From the NCBI GenBank assembly GCA_030145625.1, contig JAQYVF010000027.1:1-53906 (forward strand): a stretch of DNA of 53,906 bases, written 5' to 3'. Origin of the DNA: Desulfocapsa sp. Its GTDB lineage: Bacteria > Desulfobacterota > Desulfobulbia > Desulfobulbales > Desulfocapsaceae. Every line of letters starts with the position of its first letter. The stretch's first letter is position 1. Positions 42,745-50,131 of this stretch are shown here, piece by piece. The position numbers and the translations under genes were made by a program. The notes under the pieces were generated by a model. It did no database searches. It worked only from the letters and a program-made list of their open reading frames with translations, and was not told the origin of the DNA.

Positions 42745-44346
42745 TCAACGGATCTCAACACCATTATCATGTAGGGCCTTTTTTACCTCAGAGATGGGCA
42801 CCTCCCTGCGATGAAATATACCTGCGGCAAGGGCTGCCTCAGCATCGGTTTCCTGAAAAACGTCAACAAAATGAGCAGCCGAACCAGCACCTGATGAGGC
42901 GATGACCGGAATGGAGACTGCCTCCCGTACCTGTTTGATCAGCTCCATATCAAAGCCGCTGTTGGTCCCATCCTTATCGATACAGTTCAGAAGAATTTCT
43001 CCGGCCCCAAGTGCCTCACAACTGGTAGCAAGCTGAACAGCATCAAGATCACGCCCTTCCCTTCCGCCTTTAACTGTGCATTGATACCAGCAATACTCCT
43101 CTCCATCAGGTCCTGGCAAGGCTGTTTTTAAAGTATTATGAGTGGTCTCCTCAGGACTCTTTACATAAACCCGGCGTGGATCCACGGAAATGACAACGGC
43201 CTGGGCTCCATAGACAAAGGAGATCTGCTCAATGGCACTCTTGCCAGTCTTTTTTCCTGTGCGCAGATATTCTTCAACGGTATAGCAGGCATCAGAACCG
43301 ATGGAAATTTTGTCGGCACCGGATCTGAAATATTCTGAAGCCACATCAAGGGCTGTATACTGTTTACCATTGCTATCGGTAAACTCACGAATACCTCCTC
43401 CAATGGTAAGGGGAACAAAGACATTCTCAGACGTACGGCGCAGGACCTCGAGCATGGGTTGATCCTGCATGGGGAAATCCCTAAAACCGGTGATATTTAG
43501 AAAGGTGATCTCATCAGCCCCCTCCTCATAGTACCGTTTGGCAAGTTCCACCGGTTTACCAAGATTTCTCACCTCACCAGCATCCCGCACATCATACTGA
43601 TCGCCCTTGGTTACAACAAGATCACCGTTATCATTACTCCGCACATCAAGGCAGGCAATGACGCGTTTGGCTATACGGGTTTCAGAGAGCTTCCCTGTTT
43701 TTACTTGAGAAGATACAGTGAGTGTCTCTACTGCCCTTTCCTGTAGATACTTCTCCAAGATAGCAAGCCCCACCTTTCCACTCTTTTCAGGATGAAACTG
43801 AAAGGCGGCGACATTTCCCAGCTCCACTCCACTGACAAACTCCTCTCCATAGTTGGTGGTAGCTAGCAGCCATTCCCTATCTTCTTCCATGAGAGTGGCC
43901 CGGTAGGAATGCACAAAATAGAGTTTTTCATCATTGTATGAAGAAAAAAGAGGCGATTCCTTATGCAGATTCACACTATTCCAGCCAATCTGAGGAACGG
44001 ACAAGTCACTTTCTTTAAACCGTTTAACTTGCCCCTTAAGAATAGACAATCCGGCCACTCCTGGAGACTCTTCACTCCCTTCAAACAAAGCCTGGAGAGC
44101 GACACAAATACCGAGAAAAGGCTTGTCGGAGCGAATTCGTTCGATAAGAGGTTCGATAAATCCGTCTCGCTGCAGTCTCTCCATAACCGAGCCATAACTT
44201 CCCACACCGGGAAATATCAATCGTTCTGCCTGCAAAATATCGGCAGAACTTTTGACATCCTGCACACTGTATCCAAGTTGTTTAATGGCATTTCTGACAC
44301 TGCGGATGTTGCCGGCACCATAATCGAGTAATGTTATCATGTTCAT
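42745..44346 (-). CDS. hisHF: Fused imidazole glycerol phosphate synthase HisHF, eukaryotic HIS7 type
   Basis: A 533-residue fusion of glutaminase and cyclase. Residues 1-210 are the class I amidotransferase: [10 protein letters not shown], nucleophile Cys81 ([11 protein letters not shown]) and catalytic His-Glu in FQFHPEKSG. Residues about 225-533 are the cyclase barrel, from [12 protein letters not shown] through SIGSDACY to [11 protein letters not shown]. The cyclase has the long inserted loops ([35 protein letters not shown]) I know from yeast HIS7 and not from usual bacterial HisF. It makes IGP and AICAR for histidine and purine synthesis. No other his gene is near. No clear ribosome binding site. 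Confidence 0.92.
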
Positions 44347-44699: not shown

Positions 44700-45281
44700 T
44701 CATACAGGCTGATAATATTTTCCGTGGGCGCAACCACGACAGAGTGCCTTGCCGTCCTGTTCCACATCACGGCAATCCTGCACCCACTCACCACAGCCCT
44801 CACACTGAACGCGCCGAAGCGGTCTGCCAGGCATATCCTCCTCCGGAATCTTCACCTGCACCTCATCAACAGTGAAGAGCTCATCCTGGGGCATAACGCG
44901 GTAAGCCTCAAGCTGACGCGTGTATTTATTCTCGATCTCCGGGCAATATTTTTTGGAAAGTTCACGCGACTCTTCTCTGGCCACGATGCGCACAGCTTTC
45001 CCAGTCTCTAGATTTACAAAGGTAGCAGCCATGACTCCATAGTCTACCCAGCGCATAGACCGTTTTCCGAGACTGCAACCAGTGACAGACTGGATAGCAT
45101 CTGTGGCACAACGATCAATCTCAACCAGGACATAGAGCTTTTTTCGATCTAGTCCGCGAGGATCCTGGATACCGATGGCTTCCAGACCGATCATGGACAA
45201 CCTCACCCCGATCACCTGTCCGGCACAGATATGACCATGCACCTTGGTTGAACGCTCTAACAGTAAATCAAAAGACTCCAT
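44700..45281 (-). CDS. FmdE-family protein
   Basis: About 193 residues. The N-terminal domain is FmdE/TraR-like: HGHICAGQVIGVRLSMIG, VEIDRCATDAIQSVTGCSLGKR and a VDYGVMAATFVN strand, with conserved His and Cys residues for metal. The C-terminal zinc ribbon has CEGCGEWVQDC and LCRGCAHG. The family name comes from a subunit of formylmethanofuran dehydrogenase, but bacterial members stand alone and bind metal, and their role is unclear. The ATG at 45281 has GGAGGG; the frame extends to 45347. It is the last gene of the cobalamin run, 134 bases after the U32-like gene. Confidence 0.85.
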   Translation of the reverse strand: MESFDLLLERSTKVHGHICAGQVIGVRLSMIGLEAIGIQDPRGLDRKKLYVLVEIDRCATDAIQSVTGCSLGKRSMRWVDYGVMAATFVNLETGKAVRIVAREESRELSKKYCPEIENKYTRQLEAYRVMPQDELFTVDEVQVKIPEEDMPGRPLRRVQCEGCGEWVQDCRDVEQDGKALCRGCAHGKYYQPV

Positions 45282-45415
45282 TGCTCCCTCCGGGAAATAC
45301 GGGCCGAACTCCTTGTCAGCCCTTTGTTCAAGAGTAATCAAACACAAAAATCACAATACCCATGTAGGCATCCAGTGTCAACCAAGGCAGGAAGCAGGGA
45401 GAGAAAAAAGGGAGC

Positions 45416-46492
45416 TCAGTTTCTGAAATCCGGAAGATCGAAGGGAAGATCCCGGCCTGTTTTCTCCAGCAGTTCACGGCAATATGAACATGTTGTGCAA
45501 TTTTGCCCGCACTGACTGAGATGTTTTCTAAACCCTTCAGCAAGGAGGCTGTTATCCACATAAAGACTTCTTGCCAGCCATTCCGTGGTATCAAGGAGTT
45601 CCAGGAGATTCCCCTGATATTGTCCCTGACAGTATGCCTCGATTACCGGTTGCAGAAAAGAAGGCCCCAGAGTCCTGCCGCAGAGTTTCAGGCCATCAAC
45701 CAGCCCTAAATAGTAAGCTGAATCCTCGGGGCGAATAAAAGGAGACTGGAAGATTCGTGCTGGTTGCTCCCTTAGCAAACGGATACATCCCAGTTCTCTG
45801 TTGAGCACAAAGGTCTGTTCTCCGACAAGCCCTGTATTGGCAAGCCCGATATGGGCATCATGGGTAAGTTTGAAGGGACAGTGAAAAATACACCCTTCAT
45901 TGGCCAGCAATTCCAGATGCAGGTCAGGCCAGGTCTGCCTGCACTTCTGTACCAGATTGAGCAGAAGATCAGGACTCCTGTTCAAACTACGATCCAAAAC
46001 GATCTTGGTCGGTGGGCGAAAAGGTGTATCTTCAATATGCAAAAGACGATTATGGATTTTAGAATAGGATTGAAAAAGCGAGTTGACACCAGGGACCGCC
46101 TCCAGGCAAACCGCTGTCTCAGGACTGAAATCGCCCAGAGCCTGCAAAAAATAATAATCGTTAAAAACCAGGCCCTGCAAGCAATCCTCGGCAAGGAGAG
46201 CCTGCAGACGTGAGACAAGATCAGCCAGAAACGCTTTATCACTGTAAAGAGCCGGATGCAGGAAACGGTTGTTGCAGAGTGCATACTTGCCAGGCCCCGG
46301 CAACATGGAAAGAAGTTGACTGAGACGTCCGACATCATGACAGTCAGAGGAGTGCCGGCCATCCAGGCCATATGAAGTATACAGACTGAAGTGCAGGGAG
46401 TGAAGAAACTTCAGATGAGCAGCGAGGAAGGCAGTATAGTCCTCATCCGGAACAAAGGGAACATCAAGAAAAGGGGCACCCCCTGCTTCCAT
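45416..46492 (-). CDS. U32-peptidase-like protein with ferredoxin-like Cys cluster
   Basis: A 358-residue protein. Its centre has LLANEGCIFHCPFK (C201, C205) and, later, RPEDSAYYLGLVDGLKLCGRT (C271), which resemble conserved blocks of U32-family proteins, several of which hold Fe-S clusters. The last 30 residues have C328, C332, C335 and C338 in CX3CX2CX2C, a second possible cluster site. No signal peptide or membrane segment is seen. Its first codon overlaps the stop of cobO (TGATG), so it belongs to the cobalamin operon. Function unknown; a redox or metal step for corrinoids is a guess from context. Confidence 0.75.
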   Translation of the reverse strand: MEAGGAPFLDVPFVPDEDYTAFLAAHLKFLHSLHFSLYTSYGLDGRHSSDCHDVGRLSQLLSMLPGPGKYALCNNRFLHPALYSDKAFLADLVSRLQALLAEDCLQGLVFNDYYFLQALGDFSPETAVCLEAVPGVNSLFQSYSKIHNRLLHIEDTPFRPPTKIVLDRSLNRSPDLLLNLVQKCRQTWPDLHLELLANEGCIFHCPFKLTHDAHIGLANTGLVGEQTFVLNRELGCIRLLREQPARIFQSPFIRPEDSAYYLGLVDGLKLCGRTLGPSFLQPVIEAYCQGQYQGNLLELLDTTEWLARSLYVDNSLLAEGFRKHLSQCGQNCTTCSYCRELLEKTGRDLPFDLPDFRN

Positions 46493-47034
46493 CAGAATTC
46501 AAATCCCTTCTGCGCCTTGACACCCGAGCGATAAGGATGTTTGACCTCGCTCATCTCTGTGACCAGATCCGCAGCATCGATCAATTTCTGCGAGGCGTAT
46601 CTGCCGGTGATAACCACATGCATATCCTCTGGTTTATTCTCCAGCACGGTAAGAATCTCTTCTTCGGCAAGCATATCGTAGTGGGCCAGATAAGTAAGTT
46701 CATCCAGGATAACCAGAGAGTAGCGGTTTTGCTCAATGACCGCCTTGGCAAATTCCCAGGCCTCCAGAGCTACCGTTTTATCTTTATCCAGATCGTCAGA
46801 TTTCCAGGTAAAGCCCCGTCCCATGACATGAAAATCCAGAAGTGGGGAAAATTTCTTGGCAGCCTCCATCTCACCATATTTCCAGCTGCCCTTAATGAAC
46901 TGTATAATACAGACCCGCTGTCCGTGCCCCAGGGCCCTGAAGGCAAGGCCAAGAGATGCTGTGGTCTTTCCCTTACCGTTGCCGGTAAAGACTGCCACCA
47001 AACCTTTAGTTTTGTGTTCCTTGCCGTATACCAT
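46492..47034 (-). CDS. cobO: Cob(I)yrinic acid a,c-diamide adenosyltransferase CobO/BtuR
   Basis: About 180 residues. Walker A GNGKGKTTASLGLAFRA is specific to the CobA/BtuR/CobO family; IQFIKGSWKYGE and LVILDELTYLAHY follow, and HVVITGRYASQKLIDAADLVTEM is the conserved end. It adds the adenosyl group to cobalt(I) corrinoids using ATP in the cytosol. I start at the ATG at 47034 (AGGAG eight bases upstream), not at the longer frame to 47214 that lies inside cbiF. It overlaps cbiF by 29 bases. Confidence 0.94.
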   Translation of the reverse strand: MVYGKEHKTKGLVAVFTGNGKGKTTASLGLAFRALGHGQRVCIIQFIKGSWKYGEMEAAKKFSPLLDFHVMGRGFTWKSDDLDKDKTVALEAWEFAKAVIEQNRYSLVILDELTYLAHYDMLAEEEILTVLENKPEDMHVVITGRYASQKLIDAADLVTEMSEVKHPYRSGVKAQKGFEF

Positions 47035-47785
47035 GACTGAAACTCCTATCATATAACTTGGAAACAGCATGCAGGGCGGTATCGCCGAAAACCTCACCCA
47101 CGCAGATAAGGGCCGTCTTTTTAATACCGGCTTCTTCGACCCTGGCTGCAATATCTGCAAGCGTTCCGGTAATGCATTGTTCATCCTCCCAGGTCGCCTT
47201 TTCAACCACGGCAACAGGAGTATGAATGGGATAGCCGCCAGCGGTCAATTCCTGAACCACAGTCTCGATCATAGATACAGATAGGAAAATGAGCATGGTG
47301 GTTTGGTGACTGGCCAGAAGGCGCAACTTTTCCAGTTCCGGAACCGGAGTCCTTCCTTCCTGTCGTGTGATTATTACAGTCTGTGAAACCTCGGGCAGGG
47401 TCAATTCAGCCTTCAACGCTGCTGCAGCACCAAAAGCAGAACTCACTCCAGGTACGACATGATACGAAATCCCCAGTTCATCCAAAGCCTGCATCTGTTC
47501 CTTAATGGCACCGAAGATAGATGGATCACCGGTATGCAGCCTGACCACACGTTTTCCTTGGCGCCAGGCAGCAGACATGATTTCCACGATCTCTTCAAGG
47601 TTCATCCCCTGGGAATCATAAATCTCGGCCCGGCACTCTTCCAGCAGTTGCTTGTTAACCAGACTTCCGGCATAAACAATACAGTCAGCCTCGTCAAGGA
47701 GTCGTCTCCCCTTCAGGGTGATCAATTCAACATCACCAGGCCCTGCTCCGACAATAGCCACAGGACAATTCTTCTCTTTACTCAT
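47006..47785 (-). CDS. cbiF: Cobalt-precorrin-4 C11-methyltransferase CbiF/CobM
   Basis: A 259-residue tetrapyrrole methylase. VAIVGAGPGDVELITLKG is the SAM-binding start, and VVRLHTGDPSIFGA, YHVVPGVSSAFGAAAA and IFLSVSMIETVVQEL are CbiF/CobM hallmarks. It methylates C11 of the corrin precursor. It overlaps cbiET by 8 bases and cobO by 29. Confidence 0.95.
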   Translation of the reverse strand: MSKEKNCPVAIVGAGPGDVELITLKGRRLLDEADCIVYAGSLVNKQLLEECRAEIYDSQGMNLEEIVEIMSAAWRQGKRVVRLHTGDPSIFGAIKEQMQALDELGISYHVVPGVSSAFGAAAALKAELTLPEVSQTVIITRQEGRTPVPELEKLRLLASHQTTMLIFLSVSMIETVVQELTAGGYPIHTPVAVVEKATWEDEQCITGTLADIAARVEEAGIKKTALICVGEVFGDTALHAVSKLYDRSFSHGIRQGTQN

Positions 47786-49034
47786 GAACGAACTCCTGAA
47801 TCTGTTTTATTCCCACAATAATTTTGATTGGATTGTACTGCTGTCGCTCTCCCTCAGGATAACTGAATCGCTGCACGGCAAGTTCTCTTATTTCCACTTC
47901 AAGCCCATGGTCATAAAGAATTTTCGGGGCCTGTTCTGCAGTTTTTTCAATAACGGCATTCACCACCATGATCCCACCCGGCAAAAGCCTGGTCACACAA
48001 TAATCAAGGATCTGTTCCAGGTTACCGCCACTGCCACCGACAAAAATCCTGCTCGGATCGGGCAAGTTGTACAATGCATCGGGCGCCATCCCCTTCACCA
48101 GTTCCAGGTTCCAGGCAGCAAATTTTTTTCGATTGTTCTCAATATTCTTCCACTGCTCTTCTTCCTTTTCAATGGCCAGGACACGAATTTCAGGAAAGAG
48201 ACGGGCAACCTCCAAACCCACTGATCCGGAACCGGCTCCCACATCCCAAAGGACCCCATTTTTGGGCAGGCGCAGTGAATGAATGGATGCCGCCCGCACT
48301 TCATTTTTTGTTATCAGACCCCGGCTGTGACAAATTTCAGGCTCCTGTAATCCGAAAATCGGTTCAGCTTCCTGGGAAAGATTCCGGTTCACCAGAATCA
48401 TCACATTGGGATCAACAAAAGCTTGCTCAGCGATTTCCTCAAGGCTCCCCTTAATCAGTCGTTCTGTCTCAAACCCGAGATTTTCACCAACATGAACCTT
48501 TATCCCTGATGTATATTCTTTTCCGCACTCCGTTAGCAGTTGCCGGGCAATCATATTGGGAGTGTTCTGCCTGTCGGTGAGTATAAAAACCTTAGGCCAC
48601 CTTAGAAGGCTGACAGCAAGGTTCCCGGCAGGACGTCCATGGAGACTGACAAAATGAGCATCATCCCAGGGTATCTGAAATCTGGAAAAGGCAAGCTGCA
48701 TGGAAGAACGAGCAGGAGTAATTTGAATCTCGGTTCCAGGAAATGCACTGATGAGCTTGCGGCCAATTCCAAAAAATAGTGGATCTCCAGAGGCGAGCAC
48801 CGTCACATCGCCATCATGGAGAGAATCCTCAATCCGCTGCAGTGTCATGTCTAGAGGGACAATGGGAATCTGTGGAGGCAATAGTTCCCCCGGAAACATT
48901 ACCGTCAAGTTTTGATATAAACGAGTAGAGGCTACCAGTATCACGGAAGAATGAAGGGCATGACGCAGAACAGAGAAATCCTGGTCGACCCTATCATCAA
49001 AACCAACGAGATGGAGTACTGATCCCATTGTCAA
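47778..49034 (-). CDS. cbiET: Fused cobalt-precorrin C5/C15 methyltransferase CbiE-CbiT (CobL type)
   Basis: A 418-residue fusion. Residues about 5-205 are the CbiE tetrapyrrole methylase (VTVLASGDPLFFGIGRKL, then VSLHGRPAGNLAVSLL). Residues about 225-410 are the CbiT decarboxylating C15 methyltransferase, with motif I LWDVGAGSGSVGLEVAR and IFVGGSGGNLEQIL. CobL has the same fused order. ATGA overlap with cbiD, and 8-base overlap with cbiF. A copy of the AGGCCACCT motif lies inside at about 48596. Confidence 0.95.
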   Translation of the reverse strand: MTMGSVLHLVGFDDRVDQDFSVLRHALHSSVILVASTRLYQNLTVMFPGELLPPQIPIVPLDMTLQRIEDSLHDGDVTVLASGDPLFFGIGRKLISAFPGTEIQITPARSSMQLAFSRFQIPWDDAHFVSLHGRPAGNLAVSLLRWPKVFILTDRQNTPNMIARQLLTECGKEYTSGIKVHVGENLGFETERLIKGSLEEIAEQAFVDPNVMILVNRNLSQEAEPIFGLQEPEICHSRGLITKNEVRAASIHSLRLPKNGVLWDVGAGSGSVGLEVARLFPEIRVLAIEKEEEQWKNIENNRKKFAAWNLELVKGMAPDALYNLPDPSRIFVGGSGGNLEQILDYCVTRLLPGGIMVVNAVIEKTAEQAPKILYDHGLEVEIRELAVQRFSYPEGERQQYNPIKIIVGIKQIQEFVHE

Positions 49035-50131
49035 ACCTCCCCATCAGTCATGGCCACAATCGTGGAAGAGGCATCAACGAGATAAACGATTACATCGATT
49101 CCAGAGACCTCTTGGCAGTAGTCCTGTGCAGCTTCACAGACCCGAAGAATCACCTCATTCTCCCCCTGCTCCAAAAGGCGTCCATAGATTTCACGGGCGG
49201 TGTTGGATCCCTCCAGGATTTGCAGGAGTTCTGAACTGCAGCCGAGCCCACTAAGAAATTTCAGGGCTGCTATTACCTCAAGCGCCCCATTACGTACATG
49301 GGTCTGCGGGATCTTCATCCCCCCTTTCATCACTTTGGCCCACATGGCAGCAAGGTGAATCTTCTGAAAGTTATGGCGAGCCGCTTCCTGCAATGAAAAA
49401 TGGAGATAATCCCCCATCATCACCTGCGCCTCTTCAGGCAGATCAAGATGTTCCTGTACCGCCCGTTCCGATGTTCTCCCTGTGGAAAGAATAACCTCTG
49501 TCAATCCAGCCGCCCGAGCGACATCCATGGAGGCGGTAATAGTTGCAGTCCAGGCATCCGCTGAAATCGGGCGTACAATACCGGTAGTGCCAAGCACAGA
49601 GAGGCCGCCCACAATACCAAGACGATGGTTCAGTGTCTTCTTTGCAAGTTCCACTCCTTGAGGGATGGAGATGGTGATATCCAGACAATGTTCCTCTTCC
49701 CCATTTCCCTCCACTAAAGCCTCGGCAACGGCCTCCCGAATCATCTTCCTCGGAACCGGATTGATGGCAGGCTCACCAACCGGGACAGCGAGCCCTCTCT
49801 TGGTAACACTCCCCACACCAACCCCACCCAGGATCTGGAGTGATTCGCCTCTATTCATGTCCTTCTTTTGATAACAGACAGAGGCCTCAATCCTGGCACC
49901 ATTGGTCACATCAGGATCATCTCCGGCATCTTTGATCACTGCCGCCATGGCAGCACTTTTCTCAGAATCCATAAAATCCGAGTGAACAAGATTAAACCTG
50001 ACCCGTGAACCATCGGGAAAGGGTATCTCCACAGAGTCCTGTATCGTACCGCTGACAAGCAACAAGGCTGCAGCCTTTGCAGCTGCTGCAGCACAAGCCC
50101 CTGTGGTATATCCGGATCGTAGTTTTTTCAT
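49031..50131 (-). CDS. cbiD: Cobalt-precorrin-5B C1-methyltransferase CbiD
   Basis: A 366-residue protein. The start LRSGYTTGACAAAAAKAAA is the CbiD signature, followed by VKDAGDDPDVTNGA-type residues (here VIKDAGDDPDVTNGARIE), VGSVTKRGLAVPVGEPAINP and TTGIVRPISADAW. It methylates C1 in the anaerobic corrin route, which identifies the pathway as cobalt-early. It is the first gene of the operon; no B12 riboswitch is visible upstream, but two palindromic sites are. Confidence 0.96.
   Translation of the reverse strand: MKKLRSGYTTGACAAAAAKAAALLLVSGTIQDSVEIPFPDGSRVRFNLVHSDFMDSEKSAAMAAVIKDAGDDPDVTNGARIEASVCYQKKDMNRGESLQILGGVGVGSVTKRGLAVPVGEPAINPVPRKMIREAVAEALVEGNGEEEHCLDITISIPQGVELAKKTLNHRLGIVGGLSVLGTTGIVRPISADAWTATITASMDVARAAGLTEVILSTGRTSERAVQEHLDLPEEAQVMMGDYLHFSLQEAARHNFQKIHLAAMWAKVMKGGMKIPQTHVRNGALEVIAALKFLSGLGCSSELLQILEGSNTAREIYGRLLEQGENEVILRVCEAAQDYCQEVSGIDVIVYLVDASSTIVAMTDGEV

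What the first reader, a model, noticed from the sequence alone, without database searches (positions are those of the whole stretch)
42745..44346. Eukaryotic-type fused HisHF in a bacterium
Most bacteria have separate HisH and HisF. Here both are fused and the cyclase carries the long loops I recall from yeast HIS7 ([35 protein letters not shown]). It stands alone without other his genes. It may reflect gene transfer between eukaryotes and bacteria, in either direction.
Basis: partly seen in the sequence, partly recalled or inferred. Interest (0 to 1): 0.6.

Follow-up and report, generated by a model that had tools for sequence, protein, structure and literature searches.

The report
Bacterial fused HisHF, yeast HIS7 type
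This bacterium has a fused two-in-one histidine-making enzyme like that of yeast; such bacterial fusions were already published, but relatives found here, including an unfused half-way form, hint that eukaryotes got the enzyme from bacteria rather than the reverse.

Summary
Confirmed: 42745-44346 (minus strand, 533 aa) is one intact gene for a fused HisH-HisF imidazole glycerol phosphate synthase that aligns end to end with yeast HIS7, loops included. It is the only HisH and HisF over family cut-offs in its genome and keeps the catalytic and gate residues. It is no one-off: 51 of 60 genomes of its family and 63 of 395 of its phylum (25 families) match full length; purple sulfur bacteria, an Archaeoglobales MAG and a Nitrospirota MAG have it too. 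The kind is published: Fani 2007 (PMC1963479) reported it in two delta-proteobacteria, with shared insertions, and proposed plant-to-bacterium transfer. My evidence leans the other way. Yeast falls inside the prokaryotic fused clade in the trees made, and a class-level lineage of the phylum (three genomes) has an unfused HisF with three of the five HIS7 insertions, at the base of the fused forms. Against: AU tests do not reject yeast outside (p 0.18-0.32), yeast is the only verified eukaryote, and that lineage's HisH is ordinary. Ordinary enzyme; open, testable origin.

The parts
42745..44346 (-). fused hisHF gene (533 aa), bifunctional imidazole glycerol phosphate synthase
   Evidence: AlphaFold model pLDDT 87.3; its six best PDB matches by fold are yeast HIS7 chains, TM 0.88-0.90, 49-51% identity
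43738..44346 (-). HisH glutaminase domain (residues 1-203); triad C81, H185, E187
   Evidence: TIGR01855 at 43741-44337; triad aligned to yeast and invariant in 45 of 45 fused rows
43675..43737 (-). interdomain linker (about residues 204-224)
   Evidence: between the two family matches; residues 205-220 have pLDDT under 50
42748..43674 (-). HisF cyclase domain (residues 225-533); catalytic D234 and D389, gate residues R228, E279, K346, E450
   Evidence: TIGR00735 at 42748-43674; residues invariant in 45 of 45 fused rows
43561..43638 (-). insertion block A (about residues 237-262, some 10 aa longer than ordinary His[12 protein letters not shown])
   Evidence: alignments; present in f23, fused forms and yeast; limits approximate
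43462..43482 (-). insertion block B (about residues 289-295, 3 aa longer)
   Evidence: in fused forms and yeast, not in f23; limits approximate
43342..43374 (-). insertion block C (about residues 325-335, 11 aa)
   Evidence: in fused forms and yeast, not in f23; limits approximate
43246..43287 (-). insertion block D (about residues 354-367, 12-13 aa)
   Evidence: present in f23, fused forms and yeast; limits approximate
43090..43170 (-). insertion block E (about residues 393-419, over 20 aa; [13 protein letters not shown] loop)
   Evidence: present in f23, fused forms and yeast; limits approximate

Best explanation
The gene makes the cell's only recognisable imidazole glycerol phosphate synthase. 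The N-terminal HisH half hydrolyses glutamine; the ammonia passes through the barrel of the C-terminal HisF half, where it cyclises PRFAR to IGP and AICAR (steps inferred from the well-studied family; not assayed here). The enzyme is native to this bacterial family and belongs to a prokaryotic clade centred on the window's phylum, with spread to purple sulfur bacteria, Archaeoglobales and a Nitrospirota MAG. Within that phylum a HisF gained blocks A, D and E while still separate (state kept in lineage f23), then B and C and the fusion to a HisH; the fused gene then passed to eukaryotes as HIS7. Shown: the fusion, loops, residues, distribution and the f23 state. Favoured but not proven: the order of events and the bacteria-to-eukaryote direction. 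The enzyme part alone I hold at about 0.97; the figure below is for the whole statement.
For: Single HisH/HisF over cut-off in the genome; residues kept in 45 of 45 fused rows; fold equal to yeast HIS7. Full-length match in 51 of 60 family genomes and 63 of 395 phylum genomes in 25 family codes; 78 of 80 named loci fused, the other two cut by contig ends. 3 of 3 genomes of f23, the only members held of its class, have an unfused 298-aa HisF with A, D, E and without B, C. It lies at the base of fused plus yeast (fused plus yeast 100/99). At 33 columns that separate fused from ordinary HisF, f23 has the fused letter at 18, the ordinary at 9, another at 6. Yeast lies inside the prokaryotic fused clade: HisF 96/88 and 98/92, HisH plus HisF 95/83, HisH alone 92/72; 0% of 200 bootstrap trees hold the prokaryotic fused rows together without it.
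Against: AU tests do not reject all prokaryotic fused forms as one clade without yeast: p 0.179, 0.315, 0.185. In one search (insertions B and C left out) no starred set holds yeast; starred branches do not force it inside. Yeast is the only verified eukaryote, on a long branch (1.56, 1.94). f23's HisH groups with ordinary HisH (98/80), not with the fused HisH, so f23 is not a plain pre-fusion pair; HisF transfer, or fission with loss of B and C, is possible. f23 joined to fused family f27 has AU p 0.057, short of rejection. f23 is not resolved as one clade and only 88/81. Its ordinary-type letters are clumped: columns 1, 5, 6, 8, 14 and the last four of 33, none from 15 to 29, which would also fit a mosaic of two HisF types.
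Confidence: 0.58

Rival explanations
1. The published model: the fusion and the loops arose in eukaryotes and were passed to delta-proteobacteria, perhaps from plants (Fani 2007), then spread among prokaryotes.
For: All histidine-making eukaryotes are said to have HIS7 (PMC8305728, section read); the 2007 tree put three bacterial sequences with plants. AU does not reject yeast outside the prokaryotic clade.
Against: Needs f23 to have lost the fusion and blocks B and C while falling at the base, and yeast is placed inside, not outside. Breadth in one bacterial phylum.
Confidence: 0.2
2. Two transfers: a bacterial HisHF went to eukaryotes, and a eukaryotic (for example algal) copy later went back to the subclade that holds the window gene, Chromatiaceae, Archaeoglobales and a Nitrospirota MAG.
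For: Yeast falls next to or among this subclade. It would reconcile the 2007 plant grouping.
Against: Weak support, one verified eukaryote, long yeast branch; in the HisF tree yeast is not tied to this subclade.
Confidence: 0.17
3. Convergence: separate fusions and separate loop insertions in bacteria and eukaryotes.
For: Some ordinary HisF have unrelated insertions at site E (L182-L191), and three genomes have hisH and hisF in one frame with a stop between, so such changes are easy.
Against: The inserted sequences themselves are alike over the five blocks, and fused plus yeast is one clade in both domains (100/99 in HisF; 100/99 in HisH).
Confidence: 0.02

Closest known systems
Yeast HIS7 (IGP synthase, PDB 1jvn, 1ox4-1ox6)
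   Same: Domain order, full-length alignment, the five insertion blocks, catalytic and gate residues, fold
   Different: 286 of 510 aligned residues identical; bacterial gene
HisHF of delta-proteobacteria and of two Archaeoglobales (Fani 2007, PMC1963479; mSystems 2024, PMC11237513; passages read)
   Same: The same fused enzyme; the 2007 paper already describes the shared insertions
   Different: They described three bacterial sequences and two archaeal species; here it is family-wide and also in Chromatiaceae and a Nitrospirota MAG, with an unfused looped HisF in f23
Ordinary separate HisH and HisF (T. maritima type)
   Same: Same two activities and core folds
   Different: Separate chains, HisF about 250 aa without the five blocks; separate clade

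Membership tests
Bifunctional IGP synthase HisHF / HIS7 | HisH and HisF in one open reading frame, in that order | tested here: met
Bifunctional IGP synthase HisHF / HIS7 | Both domains over the curated family cut-offs | tested here: met
   TIGR01855 208 against 105.4 bits; TIGR00735 328.6 against 294.55 bits
Bifunctional IGP synthase HisHF / HIS7 | Insertions shared only by bifunctional proteins (Fani 2007) | tested here: met
   five blocks A-E in the window and yeast, absent from the ordinary HisF aligned, save unrelated insertions at site E in some; note that A, D, E also occur in unfused f23
Bifunctional IGP synthase HisHF / HIS7 | Cys-His-Glu triad, two catalytic Asp, gate residues | tested here: met
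   the residue roles are recalled from the literature on yeast and T. maritima
Bifunctional IGP synthase HisHF / HIS7 | One clade with eukaryotic HIS7 apart from separate HisH and HisF | tested here: met
   with yeast as the only verified eukaryote
Bifunctional IGP synthase HisHF / HIS7 | IGP synthase activity | not testable with these tools
   needs an assay or complementation

The most novel reading that the evidence does not exclude
Eukaryotic HIS7 is a bacterial invention: the looped HisF arose unfused in the window's phylum (state kept in the class-level lineage f23), fused to HisH there, and was handed to eukaryotes; the published direction (plants to delta-proteobacteria) is reversed and the 'still unknown' prokaryotic donor group is named.
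Probability: 0.53. Interest if true: 0.65.

Novelty: new member of a known kind. Interest (0 to 1): 0.45.

Why it matters
The histidine genes are a much-used case for how gene fusions arise. A 2021 paper still speaks of a 'still unknown' prokaryote as a possible donor of HIS7 (PMC8305728). An unfused HisF with only some of the HIS7 insertions turns the question 'which way did it go, and did the loops come before the fusion?' into one that a well-sampled tree and simple enzyme tests can answer. The window gene itself is an ordinary housekeeping enzyme of its family.

Tried and rejected
Considered and rejected: chance or a frame artefact (intact ORF, 610.6 bits to yeast); a contaminant or recent transfer into this one genome (51 of 60 genomes of the family match full length); a second, ordinary hisH or hisF in the genome; a virus or plasmid vector: viral contigs gave six loci at 32-37% identity, plasmids 93 records, all under 60% identity, the 15 listed at 34.8-39.3%. 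Neighbourhood as a clue: 10 of the 43 other ORFs listed in five hisHF loci were scanned and gave no his gene. f23 as a plain pre-fusion hisH-hisF pair: not supported, because its hisH lies on another contig in two genomes and groups with ordinary HisH; no hisH was found in the third f23 genome, G153, 80% complete. Rows left out of trees: near-duplicates at 80% identity (127 fused to 30, 70 unfused to 42; one unfused outside 240-340 aa dropped before that), then L095 and L126 (cut by contig ends) and L053 and L054 (WbuZ/AglZ-like HisF); one search used 19 of the 38 short and 20 of the 34 fused rows, the fused ones picked by hand for spread; one search added 11 fused rows to the 34; the HisH tree left out L052-L055, duplicates L148-L151 and HisH under 180 aa; one search left out six fused rows. 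The six viral loci were not used.

Not found in print: the unfused looped HisF of f23 and fused HisHF in Chromatiaceae did not appear in the listings of six searches of the open-access library or in the passages read; subscription papers are not held, and Brilli and Fani 2004 (Gene) was seen only as a reference.

The submission tried lacked fields and was not filed.

Full report
WHAT IS THERE. The stretch 42745-44346 holds one intact minus-strand ORF of 533 aa. Residues 4-202 match HisH (TIGR01855) and 225-533 HisF (TIGR00735), both over the curated cut-offs. The best match among solved structures is yeast HIS7 (1jvn), aligned over residues 3-533 at 610.6 bits; the next has 179.5 bits. Window and yeast share 286 of 510 aligned residues. 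An AlphaFold model (26-row alignment; pLDDT 87.3) has yeast HIS7 chains as its six best PDB matches, TM 0.88-0.90, 49-51% identity.

WHAT IT DOES. HisH triad C81, H185, E187, HisF aspartates D234 and D389, and gate residues R228, E279, K346, E450 align with yeast and are invariant in 45 of 45 fused rows (their roles are recalled from the literature). The own genome (229 contigs, completeness 100) has no other HisH or HisF over cut-off. By established knowledge of the family it converts PRFAR and glutamine to IGP and AICAR; no activity was tested, and I did not look for the other his genes.

HOW COMMON. In the own family 58 of 60 genomes (own included) match: 51 over nearly the whole query (from residue 4 or before to 526 or beyond, by my count of the table; two of them, G053 and G029, with one stop inside the match), 7 partial, 2 without a match. 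In the own phylum 71 of 395 genomes match at E 1e-60 or better: 63 fused and full length in 25 family codes (one of them, G277, as two matches in one 582-aa frame), 2 cut short (G092, G201), 3 of family f23 with an unfused HisF, and 3 (G166, G343, G205) with ordinary 40-44% identical hisH and hisF in one frame with a stop between. In a sample of 118 phylum genomes, 104 match an ordinary short HisF query at E 1e-40 or better; that count includes some fused and the f23 genomes. Of 43 other ORFs listed in L042, L066, L071, L108 and L112, the 10 scanned gave no his gene.

THE FIVE BLOCKS. Against ordinary HisF of about 250 aa, the fused proteins and yeast are longer at five places, A to E. Some ordinary HisF have their own unrelated insertion at site E (L182-L191), so length alone proves nothing there; but the inserted sequences of the window, its relatives and yeast are alike.

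AN UNFUSED HALF-WAY FORM. Family f23, the only family held of its class in this phylum (3 genomes, 3 genera), has in 3 of 3 genomes a stand-alone HisF with 298 aligned residues, blocks A, D and E, and no B or C. Its loop sequences show the kinship. The G079 protein passes the HisF cut-off, and its model (pLDDT 88.5) matches yeast HIS7 better than ordinary HisF. Two of the three genomes have a separate hisH on another contig; none was found in the third, 80% complete. At 33 diagnostic columns f23 has 18 fused-type, 9 ordinary-type and 6 other letters; yeast has 28, 4 and 1. The ordinary-type letters are clumped: columns 1, 5, 6, 8 and 14 and the last four, none from 15 to 29. That fits an intermediate, but a mosaic of two HisF types is not excluded.

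TREES. HisF, 76 rows, quick: f23 plus fused plus yeast 100, fused plus yeast 100 (SH-aLRT); f23 at the base but not resolved as one clade. HisF, 43 rows with ordinary HisF: fused plus yeast 100/99, f23 88/81; yeast inside the fused rows, 98/92. HisF, 38 rows rooted on f23: yeast inside, 96/88; holding the prokaryotic fused rows together costs 14.5 log units, AU p 0.179. HisH plus HisF, 49 rows (bootstrap not fully settled): yeast inside, 95/83; AU p 0.315 (7.6 log units). HisF without B and C: yeast inside, no starred set, AU p 0.185. HisH alone, 79 rows: fused plus yeast 100/99 apart from all separate HisH; yeast with the window's subclade 92/72. In some searches, 0% of 200 bootstrap trees make the prokaryotic fused rows one clade. 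A long yeast branch would be expected to be pulled outward, to the root; it is not. But the AU tests do not exclude yeast outside, and they are the stricter measure.

RESULTS AGAINST. f23's HisH lies among ordinary HisH (98/80 with family f25). So f23 pairs a looped HisF with an ordinary HisH; it may have received its HisF, or may descend from a fused form that lost HisH and two blocks. Joining f23 to fused family f27 has AU p 0.057. Yeast is the only verified eukaryote.

LITERATURE. Fani 2007 (PMC1963479; passages read) found three fused sequences in two delta-proteobacteria, the shared insertions and the clustering with plants, and proposed transfer from plants. PMC11237513 (passages) reports two Archaeoglobales species with about 70% identity to HisHF of sulfate-reducing bacteria. 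PMC8305728 (passages and section 19) names hisHF among fusions of some prokaryotes and leaves open a 'still unknown' prokaryotic donor. PMC6029752 (passages) counts hisHF among the fusions of E. coli, against the other papers. PMC4339202 (passage) says that the one possible Nematostella HIS7 hit is the proteobacterial version. PMC10138114 and PMC5919458 (passages) gave nothing on bacterial fused HisHF. So the finding is a new member of a known kind; what I did not find in print is the unfused looped HisF and the nesting of yeast.

VERDICT. A real, intact, lineage-wide fused IGP synthase, very probably working; the kind is already published. The better-supported history is bacterial origin and transfer to eukaryotes, at about 0.53-0.58.

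Noticed in passing
window 46492-50131 (minus): Run of cobalamin biosynthesis genes near hisHF: CobA/CobO/BtuR, two tetrapyrrole methylases and CbiD.
   Followed up: partly
window 45416-46492 (minus): 358-aa ORF between the cobalamin genes and an FmdE-family gene; no Pfam match at 1e-3.
   Followed up: no
window 44700-45347 (minus): FmdE domain followed by a segment with a weak, sub-cut-off match to the zinc finger zf-dskA_traR.
   Followed up: no
L049 8612-10060, L050 8788-10212, L051 8729-10177: Ordinary hisH and hisF lie back to back in the same frame with only a stop codon between the two open frames, so a fusion would need little change.
   Followed up: partly
L052, L053, L054, L055 (own family): Some relatives carry an extra separate hisH/hisF-like pair; the L055 HisF-like protein passes the AglZ/HisF2 cut-off, and those of L053 and L054 match WbuZ and HisF below the cut-offs.
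   Followed up: partly
L182-L191: Several ordinary HisF of the phylum are 271-285 aa long (against about 251) through unrelated insertions at the site of block E.
   Followed up: partly
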